39,783 bases of DNA, taken from contig DAHWHN010000076.1 in assembly GCA_027335685.1 (NCBI GenBank), forward strand, positions 1-39,783, read 5' to 3'. How positions within the stretch are numbered: the stretch's first letter is position 1; every line of letters starts with the position of its first letter. The position numbers and the translations under genes were made by a program. Below are positions 16,827 through 22,865 of this stretch, piece after piece. Source of the DNA: Acidimicrobiaceae bacterium (GTDB taxonomy: Bacteria; Actinomycetota; Acidimicrobiia; Acidimicrobiales; Bog-793). The notes below the pieces were generated by a model that searched no databases, was not told the origin of the DNA, and worked only from the letters and a program-made list of their open reading frames with translations.

Positions 16827-17401
16827 GCCCGCCCGGGCACCGCGCGTCACGGTGTGGGACCGGCGGCTCGCCGCGATGCGTCGTGTCGTCCCCGGCCCGG
16901 ATGTCACGCTCCCCGGGGCGTGGCGGTGTCCGAGGAGGATGGGGGTGCCGTGACCGGTGCCCGCACCGTCCGCGGCAGGCTCGGGCGGGCCACATGTTGG
17001 CGTATAGGGGACCGGCGAGGACCCGGCGAGGACCCAGCGAGGACCCGGCGCGGGCGCGCCTGGCCGCGCGTGGTCGAGCTCGTCGAGTGGCGCCTCGCCG
17101 GCCGGCCGGAGCACGCTGAGCGCGGTCTGGCACTAGCCGTGGTCACGTTCGCGCGGCGCGTGGCTCCATGCGGCGCGCACGATGCAGTCGGGGAGGCGTC
17201 GGGGCAGCGTGGCGGGGTCAGGATGTGATCTCGTGGTACCTGGTGACAACTCGGCGCACCACGTTGAACTACCATGACTCGCGTACTAGGTCTTGTCGTC
17301 TGCGTCCCGGTGCACCACGTGACTCGTCCGAAGCCATCGGACGGACGGCGTGTCGCACGGGCTCCGTCGCCGCAGACGACCGAGGGAATCGAGCACCGCG
17401 C
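16827..17401. other. 575-base stretch without a convincing gene
   Basis: No frame here has recognisable protein features. The visible structure is an 11-base tandem repeat (CGAGGACCCGG, three copies at 17016-17048). The motif GCACCACGT occurs twice (about 17250 and 17310), near a possible weak TTGAAC -35 box before the antitoxin gene. A 5-base dyad CACCG/CGGTG follows the GH3 stop. Confidence 0.6.
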
Positions 17402-17737
17402 GTGACGCACGTCCAGGTCCACGTCGGCCCCCACGGCCGGATCGTCATACCCGCAGAGTTCCGCAAAGAGCTCAACATGGAGCCGGGAGCGACGCTCGTC
17501 GCGTACGTCGCCGACGGCAACCGCCTCGTGCTCGAGGACCACAGGGCACACGTCGCACGCCTGCGCGGAGCGTGGCGGCACCTCGTCCCGACGGGCCGGG
17601 ACCCCCTCGCCGAGCTCGACGCCGAGCGCGCCGCCGAGGTCCAGCTCGACGACGCCGAGCTGCTCGGCGACGAGGCGGTGCTCGACGAGGCGCACGCGCT
17701 GCTCGCGCGGGGTGGTCGCTCGGAGGCGGGGCAATGA
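17402..17737 (+). CDS. AbrB/SpoVT-type antitoxin of a VapBC pair
   Basis: The 111-residue protein starts with a swapped-hairpin AbrB/MazE DNA-binding domain (HVQVHVGPHGRIVIPAEFRK, then ELNMEPGATLVAYVADGNRL at about 20-45). An acidic Ala/Leu/Asp-rich C-terminal tail fits a toxin-binding arm. Its stop overlaps the PIN-domain toxin gene by four bases (ATGA), the normal antitoxin-toxin order. It should repress its own promoter and neutralise the toxin. The GTG at 17402 is chosen because the domain begins immediately after it; an upstream in-frame extension to 17168 is low-complexity and unlikely. Confidence 0.85.
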   Translation: MTHVQVHVGPHGRIVIPAEFRKELNMEPGATLVAYVADGNRLVLEDHRAHVARLRGAWRHLVPTGRDPLAELDAERAAEVQLDDAELLGDEAVLDEAHALLARGGRSEAGQ

Positions 17738-18186
17738 CCGTCGTCCTCGACGCGTCGGCCTGGCTCGCGTACCTGCTCGACGAGGCGGGCGCGAGCGCCG
17801 TCGAGGACCTCGTGGTCGACGGCGCGGTCATGTCCTCGGTCAACCTCGCGGAGGTCTGCTCGCGTCTCGCCGACGTCCGTCGAGACGTCGCAGCGGTGCT
17901 CGAGCGCGCCGCGTCTGCCCTCTCGCGCAGCGAGCAACCGCGCTTCGTGACGAGCGGCCTGCCGGTCCTGCCCGAGACCGTCGAGGTGCTCCCGTTCACG
18001 GAGGCCGACGCGTGGACGGTCGGCGGTCTGCGGCTCGCGACCCGAGACGCCGGGCTGTCGCTCGGCGACCGAGCCTGCCTCGCCCTCGCCCGCCGGATCG
18101 ACGCGTCGGTCGTGACGACGAACAAGCGCTGGCTCGACCTCGACCCGGTGGCGACGGGCGTCGACGTGATCGTCGTACCGACCTGA
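17734..18186 (+). CDS. vapC: VapC-like PIN-domain ribonuclease toxin
   Basis: PIN-domain toxins cut RNA using acidic residues that bind magnesium. In this roughly 150-residue protein the first Asp is in VVLDASAWLAYL (Asp6), Glu is in NLAEV (about 40), the third acid is Asp113 in LSLGDRACLALA, and the C-terminal VTTNKRWLDLD segment supplies the fourth. The length is normal. It is translationally coupled to the AbrB-type antitoxin. The last codons and stop lie in an 18-base tandem duplication (18171-18206). The tRNA or rRNA target cannot be predicted. Confidence 0.9.
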   Translation: MTVVLDASAWLAYLLDEAGASAVEDLVVDGAVMSSVNLAEVCSRLADVRRDVAAVLERAASALSRSEQPRFVTSGLPVLPETVEVLPFTEADAWTVGGLRLATRDAGLSLGDRACLALARRIDASVVTTNKRWLDLDPVATGVDVIVVPT

Positions 18187-18206
18187 TCCGTCGTGCCGAC
18201 CTGATC
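18171..18206. repeat. 18-base tandem duplication across the vapC stop
   Basis: CGTCGTACCGACCTGATC is followed immediately by CGTCGTGCCGACCTGATC (one difference) and then CGTCGTG. The first copy contains the vapC stop codon, so the second is in the downstream spacer. Confidence 0.8.
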
Positions 18207-18280
18207 CGTCGTGACCGGGGTCACCACCACGGCTTTTGCGACGACCGCAGTCCTCGCGTGTGCTCCGGGCGTCGTGACGC

Positions 18281-19033
18281 TCATCCCGGCGTGGTCTTTG
18301 CCCGCAGGAGCCCGAGAGGCTCGGCGCGGACCCGAGCTGCGAGACCAGGGGAGAGCGCACCGGTGACGACGAGCTCGTGCTCGACCTCGAGCTGGCGCTC
18401 CCGGGCGAGTCGGGGGTGGACGACCGGGTCGTAGGCGCTCGGGGCCTGGACGAGGCCGGCCAGCATGGCCGCCTGGGCCCAGGAGAGGTCGGAGGGCGTC
18501 CTCCCGAAGTACGTGTGCGCTGCGGCGACGAGCCCGTAGGCGCCCTGGCCGTAGTAGGCCGCGTCAAGGTAGAGGGTCGCGAGGACTGGCGCCGGGTAGG
18601 TGATCTCGAGCTTGAGCGCGAGCCCGATCTGCTCGATCTCGGAGCCGAGCCCCGTCGCCGGGCCCGTGTAGACGAGCTTCGCGAGCTGCTGGGCGATCGT
18701 GCTACCGCCCTGGTCGGGCAGGCCGTGCACCACCCGGTTCCAGATGTAGCGCACTGCTCCGTACGCGATGTCGACGCCCGGTGGCGCGCCGAGGAGGTGG
18801 TCCTCGATCGCCGTGATCGCCGCGACGACGCGCGGGGGAGGTGGAACGTGCGCGGGCACCCCGCCGTGGACGGCGAGGTCCGCCTGGACGAGCGCCGCGG
18901 CGTCGGCGACGCTCGGCACCGCAGCGAGGAGCGCGGCGGACGCGCCGGCGAGGAGCACGGCGGCACAGGCCACGACGATCGCGGCCCGCCGGGCGATCCG
19001 GCCAGCCGGGCCGCGCGTGGCCCGGCTCGTCAC
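18281..19033 (-). CDS. Divergent GT51 monofunctional peptidoglycan glycosyltransferase-like protein
   Basis: GT51 enzymes polymerise lipid II into glycan chains at the membrane. The 250-residue protein has one N-terminal membrane anchor (about 17-40) and then the GT51 order: AIEDHLL (Glu77, motif 1), QGGSTIAQQLAKLVY (108-122, motif 2), IGLALKLE (motif 3) and YLDAAYYGQGAYGL (motif 4). Motif 1 departs from EDxxFxxHxG (Phe and His replaced), and the second catalytic Glu of motif 3 may be Gln136 instead, so activity is uncertain. The start is a GTG at 19033, four bases after the DedA stop, so the two are probably co-transcribed. There is no transpeptidase domain. Confidence 0.85.
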   Translation of the reverse strand: MTSRATRGPAGRIARRAAIVVACAAVLLAGASAALLAAVPSVADAAALVQADLAVHGGVPAHVPPPPRVVAAITAIEDHLLGAPPGVDIAYGAVRYIWNRVVHGLPDQGGSTIAQQLAKLVYTGPATGLGSEIEQIGLALKLEITYPAPVLATLYLDAAYYGQGAYGLVAAAHTYFGRTPSDLSWAQAAMLAGLVQAPSAYDPVVHPRLARERQLEVEHELVVTGALSPGLAARVRAEPLGLLRAKTTPG

Positions 19034-19037
19034 CGGG

Positions 19038-19700
19038 CTAGCCGCCTTGGACCGCCTCGGCCTGACGCTCGAGGTCGCGCGTCGTACGGTAGCTCTTCCA
19101 GCGATGCCAGAAGAACCCCGCGATCACCGCGACCGCCACCACGGCGAGCACGTAGCCGGCGTCGCTGAAGGCGTGGACGATCGCGTGCCAGTGACCACCG
19201 ATGCCGTAGCCGACGCCGGCCATCGCGCTCAGCCAGACGAGGCTACCTGCCACCGTGAGCAGCCCGAACGCAACCGGAGGAACCTCTGCGACCCCGGCGA
19301 CAAGGGCGACGAAGCCCCGGATGAACGGCACGAGCCGGCCTCCGAACACGCCCCAGCGCTCGTGGCGGCCGTACCAGGCCTCGGCGCGGTCGAGATCGGT
19401 CTTCGTGAGAAGGACGTACTTGCCCCATCGCTCGACGATCGCCCGACCGCCGGTGCGGCCGATCAGCCACGCAACGTAGGCACCGAGGATCTCGCCGCTC
19501 ACGCCGACAGCGACGGCCCCCTCGAGGCTCAGGTGACCGGTCGCAGCGAGCACGCCGGCGAACCCCATGGTGATCTCCGACGACGTCGGGATGCAGCACG
19601 ACTGGGCGACGCACAGCACGAAGATCGCGACGTAGCCAGACGACGAGACGAAGTGCGAGGTCGAGAGGAAGGCGAGCACGGTCACCACACACTCTGCCAT
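19038..19700 (-). CDS. DedA-family (SNARE-associated/VTT domain) membrane protein
   Basis: DedA proteins are polytopic membrane proteins linked to lipid-carrier (undecaprenyl phosphate) flipping and membrane homeostasis. This 220-residue member has several hydrophobic helices, SGEILGAYVAWLIGRTGGRA, and the re-entrant signature GGRLVPFIRGFVALVAGVAE with the conserved Arg-Pro-Arg pattern. The C-terminus is basic. I start at the ATG at 19700, where similarity to the family begins, and leave out a low-complexity extension up to 20075. No ribosome site is visible before this ATG. The GT51-like gene follows four bases later, giving a small envelope operon. Confidence 0.88.
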   Translation of the reverse strand: MAECVVTVLAFLSTSHFVSSSGYVAIFVLCVAQSCCIPTSSEITMGFAGVLAATGHLSLEGAVAVGVSGEILGAYVAWLIGRTGGRAIVERWGKYVLLTKTDLDRAEAWYGRHERWGVFGGRLVPFIRGFVALVAGVAEVPPVAFGLLTVAGSLVWLSAMAGVGYGIGGHWHAIVHAFSDAGYVLAVVAVAVIAGFFWHRWKSYRTTRDLERQAEAVQGG

Positions 19701-20076
19701 GTGGAGCCGATGCCGGCTGGACGACGGGCGCGTCGGCGCGTCACGTCCGCGTGCCCGAGCCGGCGTGCCCGAGGGCCTCGGTGACAGCAGTCCATGGCCG
19801 CGAGTGTGCGCGGCCGACCTTGCGGGACCATGAACGGCCCACGACCTCGGGCCCGGCTTCCCGCTGGTGGGGGCTGCCGGGCTGCCGGGCTGCCGGGCTG
19901 CGCGAGATGGCGCTGCCGAGCCTGGACCGGATCGGCCCTCGATCGCGACCGCCGTCCGGTCGTTGGACTCTGCGGGTCCGTCGCGCATCGGGGCACGGTC
20001 GTCAGGTCGCGCCTCGACCGCGTGGCACCCGAGCGCGTGGCGCCCGACCACGTACAAGACGGCGACAAGGAGCACG
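19701..20076. other. 376-base divergent spacer with 8-base repeats
   Basis: This region separates the DedA gene from the divergent Hcp-like gene. It contains four near-perfect copies of GGGCTGCC (19871-19902) and an imperfect repeat of CGTGGCACCCGAG-type sequence near 20020-20050. No convincing promoter or gene was seen; the long frames crossing it are low-complexity. Confidence 0.55.
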
Positions 20077-20805
20077 ATGTTGATGGCACGCGGAGCAAGA
20101 GTGGTGGCGTCGGCGGTCGCGATTGCGGCCCTCGGCGGAGTCGGACTCGCGTCGTGGGCAGCCGGCGGGGTCTCGTCGGCCTCTCGGGCCGCCGACGGCG
20201 GACCGGGCCGCGGTGGCCCACCTCCCGGGGTACCGGGGCGTGGGCCATCTGCCGAGGGGATCGGTCAGCGCCCGGGGACGGCGACCCTCGTCCTTACCCC
20301 GGCGGCGAGTGGGTCCGGCTCGACAGCATCGACCGCCGTCACGCTCGACCTCACCGGCTACGACTTCTCGTCGTCGGTGCAAGGAGCGATCGGATCCCAG
20401 AGCTCGGGCGCCGGTGCCGGCAAGGTCGTCGTCGCGCCGCTCGTCGTCACCACGGTGCCCGGGCCGCAGACAGCAGGGCTCTTCGCGGACCTCGCAGCAG
20501 GCGGCGCCTTCACGTCGGCCGAGCTCGTCGTCGCCGGCCAGCCTGCGGGCTCGCCGCTGCTCGACGTGACGTTCAAGCTCGTGCAGCTGCAGAAGATCGA
20601 GGAGTCCTCGTCGGCAGGCGCGGCCGAGACGCCAGGCCCCGCGGACCCGGTCGGTCCGTCGAGCCCGGTCGAGACCTTGAGCTTCTCGTACGGATCGTCG
20701 TCGGTCGCACCGCCGCCGTCCGGTGGCCAGCTGCCGGGCTCGGGCGGCTCGGGCGGCTCGGGCGGCTCGGGCGGCTCGGGCGGCTCGGGCGGCAGCGGGT
20801 CGTAG
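20077..20805 (+). CDS. Secreted Hcp-like (type VI tube family) protein with Gly-Ser tail
   Basis: The 242-residue protein begins with a signal peptide or membrane anchor (VVASAVAIAALGGVGLASWA), then a Gly/Pro-rich linker. A roughly 130-residue domain follows whose order of motifs matches Hcp tube proteins: VTLDLTGYDFSSSVQGAIGS, GAGKVVVAPLVVTT, LFADLAAGGAFTSAELVVAG, LLDVTFKLVQLQKIEESSS and VETLSFSYGSSSV. In type VI systems Hcp hexamers stack into the tube, but no other type VI gene is present here, and Hcp proteins normally lack a signal peptide. The C-terminus is a (Gly-Ser-Gly) repeat. AAGGAG precedes the ATG at 20077; a second ATG six bases on is possible. Function is unknown; a role in the cell envelope or as a secreted ring protein is conjecture. 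Confidence 0.75.
   Translation: MLMARGARVVASAVAIAALGGVGLASWAAGGVSSASRAADGGPGRGGPPPGVPGRGPSAEGIGQRPGTATLVLTPAASGSGSTASTAVTLDLTGYDFSSSVQGAIGSQSSGAGAGKVVVAPLVVTTVPGPQTAGLFADLAAGGAFTSAELVVAGQPAGSPLLDVTFKLVQLQKIEESSSAGAAETPGPADPVGPSSPVETLSFSYGSSSVAPPPSGGQLPGSGGSGGSGGSGGSGGSGGSGS
20737..20790. repeat. Six 9-base tandem repeats (GGCTCGGGC)
   Basis: Six exact copies encode the Gly-Ser-Gly tail of the Hcp-like protein. Exact repetition suggests recent slippage. Confidence 0.9.
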
Positions 20806-20870
20806 CTGGCCGGTGACGGGATCGCCGGCGACCGGCGTCGGTGATCCCGTCACCCCGAGGGCCTCTACGA

Positions 20871-20898
20871 AACTTACATAACGGACATTATCGGCTAT
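20871..20898. other. dif-like AT-rich site (possible tyrosine-recombinase site)
   Basis: In a very GC-rich region, AACTTACATAA, a six-base centre CGGACA and TTATCGGCTAT copy the 11-6-11 layout of Xer dif sites. The ATAA and TTAT ends next to the centre match the dif core, but the outer parts of the two arms are not complementary. It could be a degenerate recombination or attachment site, or only an AT-rich promoter. No recombinase gene is nearby. Confidence 0.3.
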
Positions 20899-21017
20899 GC
20901 GTAGAGAGGGGGGACCGGACGGCGGGTCCGGCGTCCTCGCCAGGCCCGATCAGGCCGGACAAGGTCCGACCAAGCCAGCCAGGACCGATCTCGCTCGCCG
21001 GGCCACAATGTTGCTCG

Positions 21018-21380
21018 GTGTCTTCTTCCTGGTGGTCAGACGGCGAGGTCTGCGCACTCTGCGGTATCCCGTTCTGCCACCCGCACCGCTCAGGTGCCCC
21101 GACGCAGCTCGTCTGGGTCGGTCCTCACGCGACCGCATACCACGTGAGCCCGACGTGCGGCGCGACCCCGAGTGGCGTCTCGTGGTACGCCCACAAGGCC
21201 ACCGCCCTGCGATTCGACTTCGATCGCGGCCCCGAGGACGACGATGCAGCCGGCGCCGGGGAGAACGTCCGCGACGGCATCGCCGCTCGTCGTCCGGTCG
21301 TTCCTCCCGGCTGGAAGCAGGTGACGATCACGGAGGCAGTCGTCGACGGTCTGCCGGCATGCATGCGTTGTCGACGGTGA
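21018..21380 (+). CDS. Cys-rich hypothetical protein
   Basis: I do not recognise a family. The roughly 120-residue product has CALCGIPFCHPH near the N-terminus and ends ACMRCRR, so a metal-binding cysteine set is possible. It also has WVGPHATAYHVSPTCG and PPGWKQVTITEAVVDGLPAC. The start is uncertain: the GTG at 21018 keeps only the compositionally protein-like part, while a GTG at 20841 would add 59 residues and run through the AT-rich dif-like site. It converges on the HNH gene, with about 50 bases between. Confidence 0.5.
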   Translation: MSSSWWSDGEVCALCGIPFCHPHRSGAPTQLVWVGPHATAYHVSPTCGATPSGVSWYAHKATALRFDFDRGPEDDDAAGAGENVRDGIAARRPVVPPGWKQVTITEAVVDGLPACMRCRR

Positions 21381-21431
21381 GCGCACCGCGTCAGTCGACT
21401 ACTATATGCAGTGTATGTGCAGAGTCTGACC

Positions 21432-22865
21432 TCAGGTCGACGGCCGGGTCGTGCCGACTCCTGGTGGCGGTCGGCCGCCGTCGTCGGCGTTCTCGGTTGG
21501 ATCCGCAGGCTCCCGGTCGCCGTCGCCGTCGCCGGCGCCGTCGCGTCGATGGTTGCGGAGACGGTTGTGGAAGCCGCAGAGCAGGCGGCCGTTCTCCTGG
21601 GTGGTGGTGCCTCCCATCGAGAACGGCACGATGTGGTCGACCTCGCAGCGGCGAAGGGGCTCGTCGCAGAGCGGATGCGTGCACGAGCGATCGCGCAGCT
21701 CGATTGCTCGCCTCGTCGCTCCGCTGAACAACCTCGTGCGGATGCCGATCTCGATCCGGCGCCCGGGCGCGAAGACCGCACGCTCGATCTCTGCGCGCTC
21801 GAGAAGTCCGAGCACGGAGCCCGGTGTGACAAGCGTGCCGTCCTCGAGCTCGCAGATCTTGCCGTAGAGGGTCTCGTAGCCGACGAGAACCGTGACGAGC
21901 GGCAAGGGGCGGCGAGCGTTCGCCGGCGTGCTCCGGCTACGGGTCGCCATCTCGACGAGCGCGTCGGCCCGCCGCTCGGCCGCCGTCCGGGCGAGCTCCG
22001 ACGTGGTCGCTCGCCGCCCGAGGCGCGCAGCCGCCTCGGCGTGGTCCTGCTCGAACAGCAGCGCCTCGAGTCGATCGAGCTCGCCGGCGACGGTCGCCCC
22101 CGACAGCTCGTCGAGGGTGATCGTACCGAGGTAGGTCCCGGAGATGCTCGGATACAGCCTGACGTCCCGCGCCCGACGGCGTCCTTCGGCGCCCTTCTCG
22201 CAGCCGTCGGGATCCGCGCACTGCGCGAAGTAGGCGCACAGGCGAGCGAAGCGCCGGTGGTCGAAGGTACGCGCGTCGTCGAGCAGTATCTGCTCCCCGC
22301 GCAGCACAGCCTCCCGCGTGCGCTGTTCGAGCATCGGCGCCACAAGGGCGAACTGCGCCGTGCTGACCGTGCCGTCGGCCCAGGCGGACCCAAAGGCCGG
22401 TAGATCGCCGGATGCCCTGCCGAGTCGCAGAAGGCGGTGGACGTCGGCTCGGGCGAGCTTGGTCTTGTGGACGACCCAGGCCGTCACGGAGCGGGCACCG
22501 TCCGCGGCGTGCTCCCCGGACGACGCGAACGCAGCGAGGGTGCGGCCGAGCACTGCGTCGAGGCGCGTCACTTCTCTCGCGAGCCGGATGACGCGATCGC
22601 CGTGGCCGAGGTCGACGGGCTCGCTCGAGGCACAGGCATCGAGCGCGCCGGCGAGCAGCTCCAAGGCCCTGTCGAACCCAAGGCCGATCTCCCCCGGCGG
22701 CGCGCCGGGCGCCCTGCACGGCGTGCACCCCCCGCTTGCTGCTCGAACGCCAGCTGGCCTGTCGGCCGCGTGCTCGTCGACGGCTGCTCGTGCGGCGCAA
22801 GCCGTCTCGCGCGCGCTGGCGACTCGCTCGAGGATCTCGCCCACCTCTCGTGTGCTCGCTGCCAC
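21432..22865 (-). CDS. DUF222 protein with C-terminal HNH endonuclease domain
   Basis: The 477-residue protein is a member of the actinobacterial DUF222-HNH family (the 13E12-repeat type, often present in several copies). The helical DUF222 region covers about the first 350 residues (ALDACASSEPVDLGHGDRVI onward). The HNH core near the C-terminus has CTHPLCDEPLRRCEVDHIVP, then MGGTTTQENGRLLCGFHNRL, giving metal-binding Cys pairs and the catalytic DH. The tail is Asp/Gly/Pro-rich. The start is a GTG at 22865 without a clear ribosome site. The biological role of this family is not established; links with repeats and mobile DNA have been suggested. Confidence 0.9.
   Translation of the reverse strand: MAASTREVGEILERVASARETACAARAAVDEHAADRPAGVRAASGGCTPCRAPGAPPGEIGLGFDRALELLAGALDACASSEPVDLGHGDRVIRLAREVTRLDAVLGRTLAAFASSGEHAADGARSVTAWVVHKTKLARADVHRLLRLGRASGDLPAFGSAWADGTVSTAQFALVAPMLEQRTREAVLRGEQILLDDARTFDHRRFARLCAYFAQCADPDGCEKGAEGRRRARDVRLYPSISGTYLGTITLDELSGATVAGELDRLEALLFEQDHAEAAARLGRRATTSELARTAAERRADALVEMATRSRSTPANARRPLPLVTVLVGYETLYGKICELEDGTLVTPGSVLGLLERAEIERAVFAPGRRIEIGIRTRLFSGATRRAIELRDRSCTHPLCDEPLRRCEVDHIVPFSMGGTTTQENGRLLCGFHNRLRNHRRDGAGDGDGDREPADPTENADDGGRPPPGVGTTRPST

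What the first reader, a model, noticed from the sequence alone, without database searches (positions are those of the whole stretch)
20077..20805. Secreted Hcp-like protein with no type VI secretion genes around it
The domain motifs follow Hcp, but the protein carries a signal peptide and a Gly-Ser tail and lies in a presumed Gram-positive. A secreted ring or tube protein outside type VI secretion would be new biology; such orphans have been noticed in actinobacterial genomes, but their role is unclear to me.
Basis: partly seen in the sequence, partly recalled or inferred. Interest (0 to 1): 0.6.

Follow-up and report, generated by a model that had tools for sequence, protein, structure and literature searches.

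The report
Secreted Hcp-fold protein without injection machinery
An uncultured actinobacterial lineage appears to export, by an ordinary signal peptide, a protein with the fold of the type VI secretion tube protein Hcp although it has no detectable injection machine; related proteins in several phyla are joined to collagen-like or adhesin domains, so the tube fold seems to have been reused as an extracellular building block.

Summary
Window 20077-20805 is a real gene, syntenic and under purifying selection in a second species of the genus. It encodes a signal-peptide-like N-terminus, a Gly/Pro linker, an Hcp domain and a slippage-built Gly-Ser tail. AlphaFold2 gives the Hcp barrel (VIA-align Z 14.0 to E. 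coli Hcp1). TssC is absent from all 298 genomes sampled in the order; phage-type sheath, VgrG and baseplate J are absent from this genome (82% complete) and its 92%-complete sister.

It is not an isolated oddity. It belongs to a clade of mostly signal-peptide-bearing Hcp domains in Actinomycetota, Acidobacteriota and Spirosoma, related to Hcps beside tssC. Full-length relatives without a signal peptide sit beside tssC in 10 of 10 cases; those with one lie in genomes with tssC in 1 of 12 (p = 3e-5). Several actinobacterial relatives carry a collagen stretch; Bradyrhizobium proteins carry tandem Hcp domains, one with cadherin/Big domains.

Best reading: a T6SS-type Hcp repurposed as a Sec-exported extracellular structural or adhesive module. 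Ring formation is untested; tubes are unlikely (no baseplate, last beta strand missing). A new variant of a known fold family; the T6SS tube-protein label is probably wrong for its function.

The parts
20077..20193 (+). Signal-peptide-like N-terminus (residues 1-39): Arg-containing n-region, hydrophobic stretch VVASAVAIAALGGVGLASWAAG, likely cleavage near SSASRA|ADGG; probable start TTG 20080
   Evidence: sequence; crude signal-peptide call and sister-species alignment
20194..20277 (+). Gly/Pro-rich linker (GGPGRGGPPPGVPGRG...), conserved in kind in the sister species (GGPGKGTPPSGVPGKG)
20278..20700 (+). Hcp (PF05638) beta-barrel domain, residues 68-208
20380..20424 (+). Loop between strands 2 and 3 (residues 102-116) with the motif IGSQSSGAGAGK; the equivalent loop mediates ring stacking in B. 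pseudomallei Hcp1
   Evidence: PMC4650826
20737..20793 (+). 6.3 perfect copies of the 9-bp unit GGCTCGGGC encoding most of the Gly-Gly-Ser tail
20808..20863 (+). Strong hairpin just after the stop codon (-45.9 kcal/mol, z -5.3), a possible transcript end without a T tract
19041..19700 (-). Divergent neighbour: VTT/DedA-type membrane protein (true start probably ATG 19700), leaving about 376 bp of intergenic DNA
   Evidence: synteny
21435..22865 (-). Downstream convergent neighbour: DUF222-HNH protein, not related to secretion

Best explanation
A T6SS-type Hcp domain has been repurposed as a Sec-exported extracellular protein. Shown: the Hcp fold; a signal-peptide-like N-terminus conserved in a second species; no T6SS or contractile system detectable in the host; placement in a clade whose members mostly carry signal peptides, live in genomes without TssC, and in some cases join the Hcp domain to a collagen-like stretch (more distant tandem-Hcp kin are joined to cadherin/Big domains). 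Inferred: the precursor is exported, the signal peptide is removed, and the flexible Gly/Pro linker and Gly-Ser tail space the barrel away from the envelope. The barrel then acts outside the cell as a self-associating (probably hexameric-ring or smaller oligomer) structural or adhesive head, not as a fired tube. The gene is probably transcribed alone, divergently from a DedA-type gene.
For: Fold: Z 14.0 (118 residues, 2.0 A) to Hcp1 4hkh, with Hcp structures filling the top ranks; profile E=2.9e-26 to 1y12. Real gene: syntenic block 17228-21669 in the sister genome; dN 0.30 against dS 0.77 in the domain. No machinery: TssC in 0 of 298 genomes of the order including this one; no phage-type sheath in this genome or G015; no VgrG or baseplate J in either. 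Signal peptide against T6SS: 10 of 10 full-length relatives without a signal peptide lie beside tssC, 1 of 12 signal-peptide relatives lie in a genome with tssC, p=3.4e-5. Tree: window in an 18-row group with 16 signal-peptide rows (SH-aLRT 88), inside a starred group (97) that also holds the tssC-linked Hcps. Fusions: collagen PF01391 over cut-off in L005, L015, L021, L040; Big_9 and cadherin domains with tandem Hcp in L038.
Against: Secretion rests on a simple hydrophobicity rule, which called 19% of other long ORFs; SignalP was not available. The window protein itself has no collagen or adhesin domain. Oligomerisation was not tested. The last beta strand (GWNRVxN) of the T6SS relatives is missing, which could weaken ring formation. 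The genome is 82% complete. Placement within the signal-peptide clade has moderate support.
Confidence: 0.62

Rival explanations
1. The barrel works outside the cell as a monomeric binding domain (like an Ig or carbohydrate-binding domain), without any ring.
For: Missing terminal strand (window ends QLPGSGG; T6SS relative L023 has a further strand 182-187). Tandem Hcp domains in one chain in Bradyrhizobium adhesin-like proteins. Hcp tubes need a tip complex to grow (PMC8718954).
Against: The stacking loop IGSQSSGAGAGK is the best conserved part, also in members not found through that motif. Collagen stalks in relatives imply an oligomer.
Confidence: 0.25
2. It is the tube protein of a contractile system that is in the missing part of the genome or too divergent to detect.
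For: Genome 82% complete. Phage-type sheaths occur in 40 of 298 genomes of the order, and in 4 of 12 Hcp carriers (p=0.06).
Against: The 92%-complete sister with the same gene has no sheath, VgrG or baseplate J. Tube proteins of such systems are assembled in the cytoplasm and carry no signal peptide. 8 of 12 carriers in the order lack a sheath.
Confidence: 0.04
3. It is an exported carrier or chaperone: a ring that holds small proteins or peptides in its lumen outside the cell, as T6SS Hcp holds effectors.
For: T6SS Hcp acts as a receptor and chaperone of effectors (abstract of PMC5874247). The fold is kept.
Against: No linked candidate cargo gene; the neighbourhood is unrelated.
Confidence: 0.06
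4. A decaying horizontally acquired gene with no function.
For: Low Pfam score; patchy distribution (5 of 35 genomes in the family); Gly-Ser tail made by slippage.
Against: Open frame, synteny and purifying selection over a deep split.
Confidence: 0.03

Closest known systems
Hcp / TssD, tube protein of type VI secretion (PF05638, TIGR03344)
   Same: Beta-barrel fold with one helix; GAGK-containing strand 2-3 loop; profile of the relatives hits P. aeruginosa Hcp1 at E=2.9e-26
   Different: Signal-peptide-like N-terminus, Gly/Pro linker and Gly-Ser tail; last strand missing; no TssC, VgrG or baseplate J found in the genome; no TIGR03344 match for the window domain
Hcp proteins fused to other domains in T6SS ('specialized' effectors)
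   Same: Hcp domain joined to other parts
   Different: Those are delivered by a T6SS; here there is no T6SS and the relatives' partner parts are collagen-like, cadherin or Big domains, not toxins
Bacterial collagen-like surface proteins
   Same: Several relatives have signal peptide, collagen stretch and C-terminal globular head
   Different: The head is an Hcp domain; the window protein itself has no collagen repeat
Tube proteins of extracellular contractile injection systems (Afp, PVC, Streptomyces CIS)
   Same: Same broad tail-tube fold (Z about 10-11)
   Different: Lower structural match than Hcp; no sheath or baseplate J found in the genome

Membership tests
Hcp fold family (PF05638) | Profile match over Pfam's cut-off | tested here: met
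   Domain alone 23.8 bits against cut-off 23.5; whole protein 22.3 bits (borderline)
Hcp fold family (PF05638) | Hcp beta-barrel fold | tested here: met
   AlphaFold2 pLDDT 81; Z 14.0 to 4hkh, Hcp chains on top
Hcp/TssD of type VI secretion | Match to TIGR03344 (VI_effect_Hcp1) | tested here: not met
   No NCBIfam match for the window domain; 17 of 30 relatives match
Hcp/TssD of type VI secretion | T6SS sheath gene in the genome | tested here: not met
   TssC 0 of 298 genomes including own, control positive in E. coli; own genome 82% complete, sister 92%
Hcp/TssD of type VI secretion | Made without a Sec signal, exported by sheath contraction | tested here: inconclusive
   Signal-peptide-like N-terminus conserved in two species, called by a simple rule only
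Hcp/TssD of type VI secretion | Hexameric rings that stack into a tube | not testable with these tools
   Only monomer models could be made; last strand missing
Extracellular contractile injection system tube | Sheath and baseplate genes in the genome | tested here: not met
   PF04984 and PF04865 absent in G000 and G015
Collagen-like surface protein | Collagen repeat (PF01391) | tested here: not met
   Window protein matches only PF05638; relatives L005, L015, L021, L040 do carry it

The most novel reading that the evidence does not exclude
The Hcp ring has left the injection machine altogether: a horizontally spread clade in Actinomycetota, Acidobacteriota and Bacteroidota exports it by Sec and uses it as a ring-forming surface or matrix polymer, in some lineages as the oligomerising head of collagen-like stalks.
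Probability: 0.35. Interest if true: 0.75.

Novelty: new variant of a known kind. Interest (0 to 1): 0.56.

Why it matters
Hcp genes are commonly read as markers of type VI secretion. This clade suggests that an Hcp call, above all one with a signal peptide, is not evidence of a T6SS. It also offers a traceable case of a contractile-machine part turned into an extracellular building block, with testable domain fusions. No account of it turned up in the eight paper searches made in the open-access library; subscription journals were not covered.

Tried and rejected
Phage and plasmid collections: no match for the window protein or its domain, nor in plasmids for a collagen-fused relative. The first genome-contig scan query was too diverse. 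No sigma-70-like promoter or T-tract terminator near the gene. An 'empty site' in the third genus member G014 could not be shown: it lacks a close match to the flanking transglycosylase-VTT block too. Association of Hcp with phage-type sheaths in the order is weak (p=0.06). The literature searches found no description of Sec-exported Hcp proteins. I rejected a direct collagen reading of the window's own linker: its glycine spacing is irregular and Pfam does not call it. One early alignment (A1) holds a mistyped start for the L008 row; it was used only for orientation and for the 59% identity to the sister, and all later alignments use locus references.

Full report
Observation. The ORF at 20077-20805 encodes 242 residues: a signal-peptide-like N-terminus, a Gly/Pro linker, an Hcp domain and a Gly-Ser tail. 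PF05638 is the only Pfam family matched (E=1.8e-4; 22.3 bits for the whole protein, 23.8 for the domain alone, cut-off 23.5). Direct sequence search of the PDB is weak (1y12, E=0.13), but a profile of 30 relatives hits P. aeruginosa Hcp1 at E=2.9e-26. AlphaFold2 on residues 60-219 (30-row alignment) gives pLDDT 81, with 83 of 160 residues at 90 or more. VIA-align 2 puts Hcp structures at the top (Z 14.0, 118 residues, 2.0 A to E. coli Hcp1 4hkh), ahead of contractile-system tube proteins (Z about 10-11).

Reality of the gene. The genome is a 2.39-Mb assembly in 153 contigs, 82% complete; the window is one whole contig. A second species of the genus, an Acidimicrobiaceae MAG (DAHXNN010000076.1, L017, the same contig as G015:C210), keeps the order GH3, MazE-like, transglycosylase, VTT, Hcp, DUF222. 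The protein is 59% identical overall and 63% in the domain, with dN 0.30 and dS 0.77 in the domain. The TTG at 20080 with GGAG upstream is shared, whereas the ATG at 20077 is ACG in the sister, so TTG is the likelier start. The tail is a perfect 9-bp repeat array (6.3 copies) and differs in the sister, so its exact sequence is not constrained. The gene appears to stand alone: about 376 bp separate it from the divergent VTT gene (start at 19700 by inspection), and a strong hairpin follows the stop.

No injection machine. Pfam finds no T6SS or phage-tail gene among the neighbours given to it. TssC is absent from 298 genomes of the order, including this one; the E. coli control rings. The phage-type sheath is in 40 of the 298 but not in this genome or its sister. 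VgrG and baseplate J are absent from both.

Relatives. PF05638 is rare: 5 of 35 genomes in the family, 12 of 298 in the order, 8 of 396 in the phylum sample. A scan of 84,980 species genomes found 26 loci in Actinomycetota, Acidobacteriota, Armatimonadota, Bacteroidota (Spirosoma) and Pseudomonadota. Full-length single-domain members without a signal peptide (10 proteobacterial loci) all lie next to tssC; Pfam confirms TssC, ImpE and TssF beside L023, and TssC beside L033. Signal-peptide members (12) lie in genomes of which one, Granulicella aggregans, has tssC, on another contig. Fisher p=3.4e-5. This count leaves out four loci: an ambiguous one (L020), a fragment (L037) and the two Bradyrhizobium tandem proteins, whose genomes lack tssC. 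In the tree the window protein joins its sister and a Thermoleophilia protein, in a group of 18 with 16 signal-peptide rows (SH-aLRT 88). That group lies within a starred group (97) that also holds the tssC-linked Hcps. The simplest reading is that a T6SS Hcp gained a signal peptide and spread horizontally. The tree is a quick search and the root is arbitrary, so the direction of change is inferred.

Domain fusions. L005, L015, L021 and L040 carry a collagen triple-helix stretch over Pfam's cut-off before the Hcp domain; L012 has one just below it. L038 of Bradyrhizobium zhengyangense joins four Hcp domains with Big_9 and cadherin-like domains, and L032 has four Hcp domains in tandem. These are parts of surface or secreted proteins (inference from the domain types), and they are the best clue to function.

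Mechanism. Shown: fold, conserved signal-peptide-like N-terminus, absence of detectable machinery, clade and fusions. Inferred: Sec export, cleavage, and use as an extracellular self-associating or adhesive module. The strand 2-3 loop, which makes the ring-to-ring contacts in B. pseudomallei Hcp1 (PMC4650826), is the best conserved part. The scan itself asked for that motif, but members found through Pfam alone (L003, L012, L013, L008) keep much of it. Against tubes: Hcp polymerisation needs a tip complex (PMC8718954), and the last strand, seen in the model of the T6SS relative L023 (residues 182-187, moderate confidence), is absent here. A ring or smaller oligomer, or a monomeric binding domain, are the live options.

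Limits. The signal-peptide rule is crude: 19% of other long ORFs pass it. The genome is incomplete. No multimer prediction was possible. Papers were searched in an open-access library only.

Noticed in passing
L032:5200-7524 and L038:5740-8523: Bradyrhizobium proteins with four Hcp domains in tandem, one with Big_9 and cadherin-like domains, in genomes without TssC; probably adhesins or type-1-secreted proteins.
   Followed up: partly
L006, L007, L009, L049, L050, L051: Canonical-type Hcp proteins (109-143 bits) without a signal peptide in actinobacterial genomes without TssC; L009 directly follows a Tat-signal-like ORF, and L011 has a Tat-like Hcp next to a second Hcp. A second, separate class of T6SS-free Hcp.
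   Followed up: partly
Order-level sample, e.g. L043-L048: Phage-type sheath proteins in 40 of 298 genomes of the order, suggesting that contractile systems are fairly common there.
   Followed up: no
window 20841-21380: Region conserved in the sister species (about 71% DNA identity) with a Cys-rich frame (LCGIPFCHPH...PACMRC) and no Pfam match; the listed GTG start lies inside the hairpin, so the true start is probably later.
   Followed up: partly
L025:694-1296 and L025:2405-3604: An acidobacterial contig with two separate signal-peptide Hcp-like ORFs; the second is too divergent for Pfam.
   Followed up: no
N-terminal part of L005, L012, L013, L019, L021, L040: Shared motif (ACxxxxGxLRLVxxxxxCRxxETAVQWxxxGPxGP) between signal peptide and collagen stretch; Pfam named no domain there except a weak DUF6188 match in L019.
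   Followed up: no
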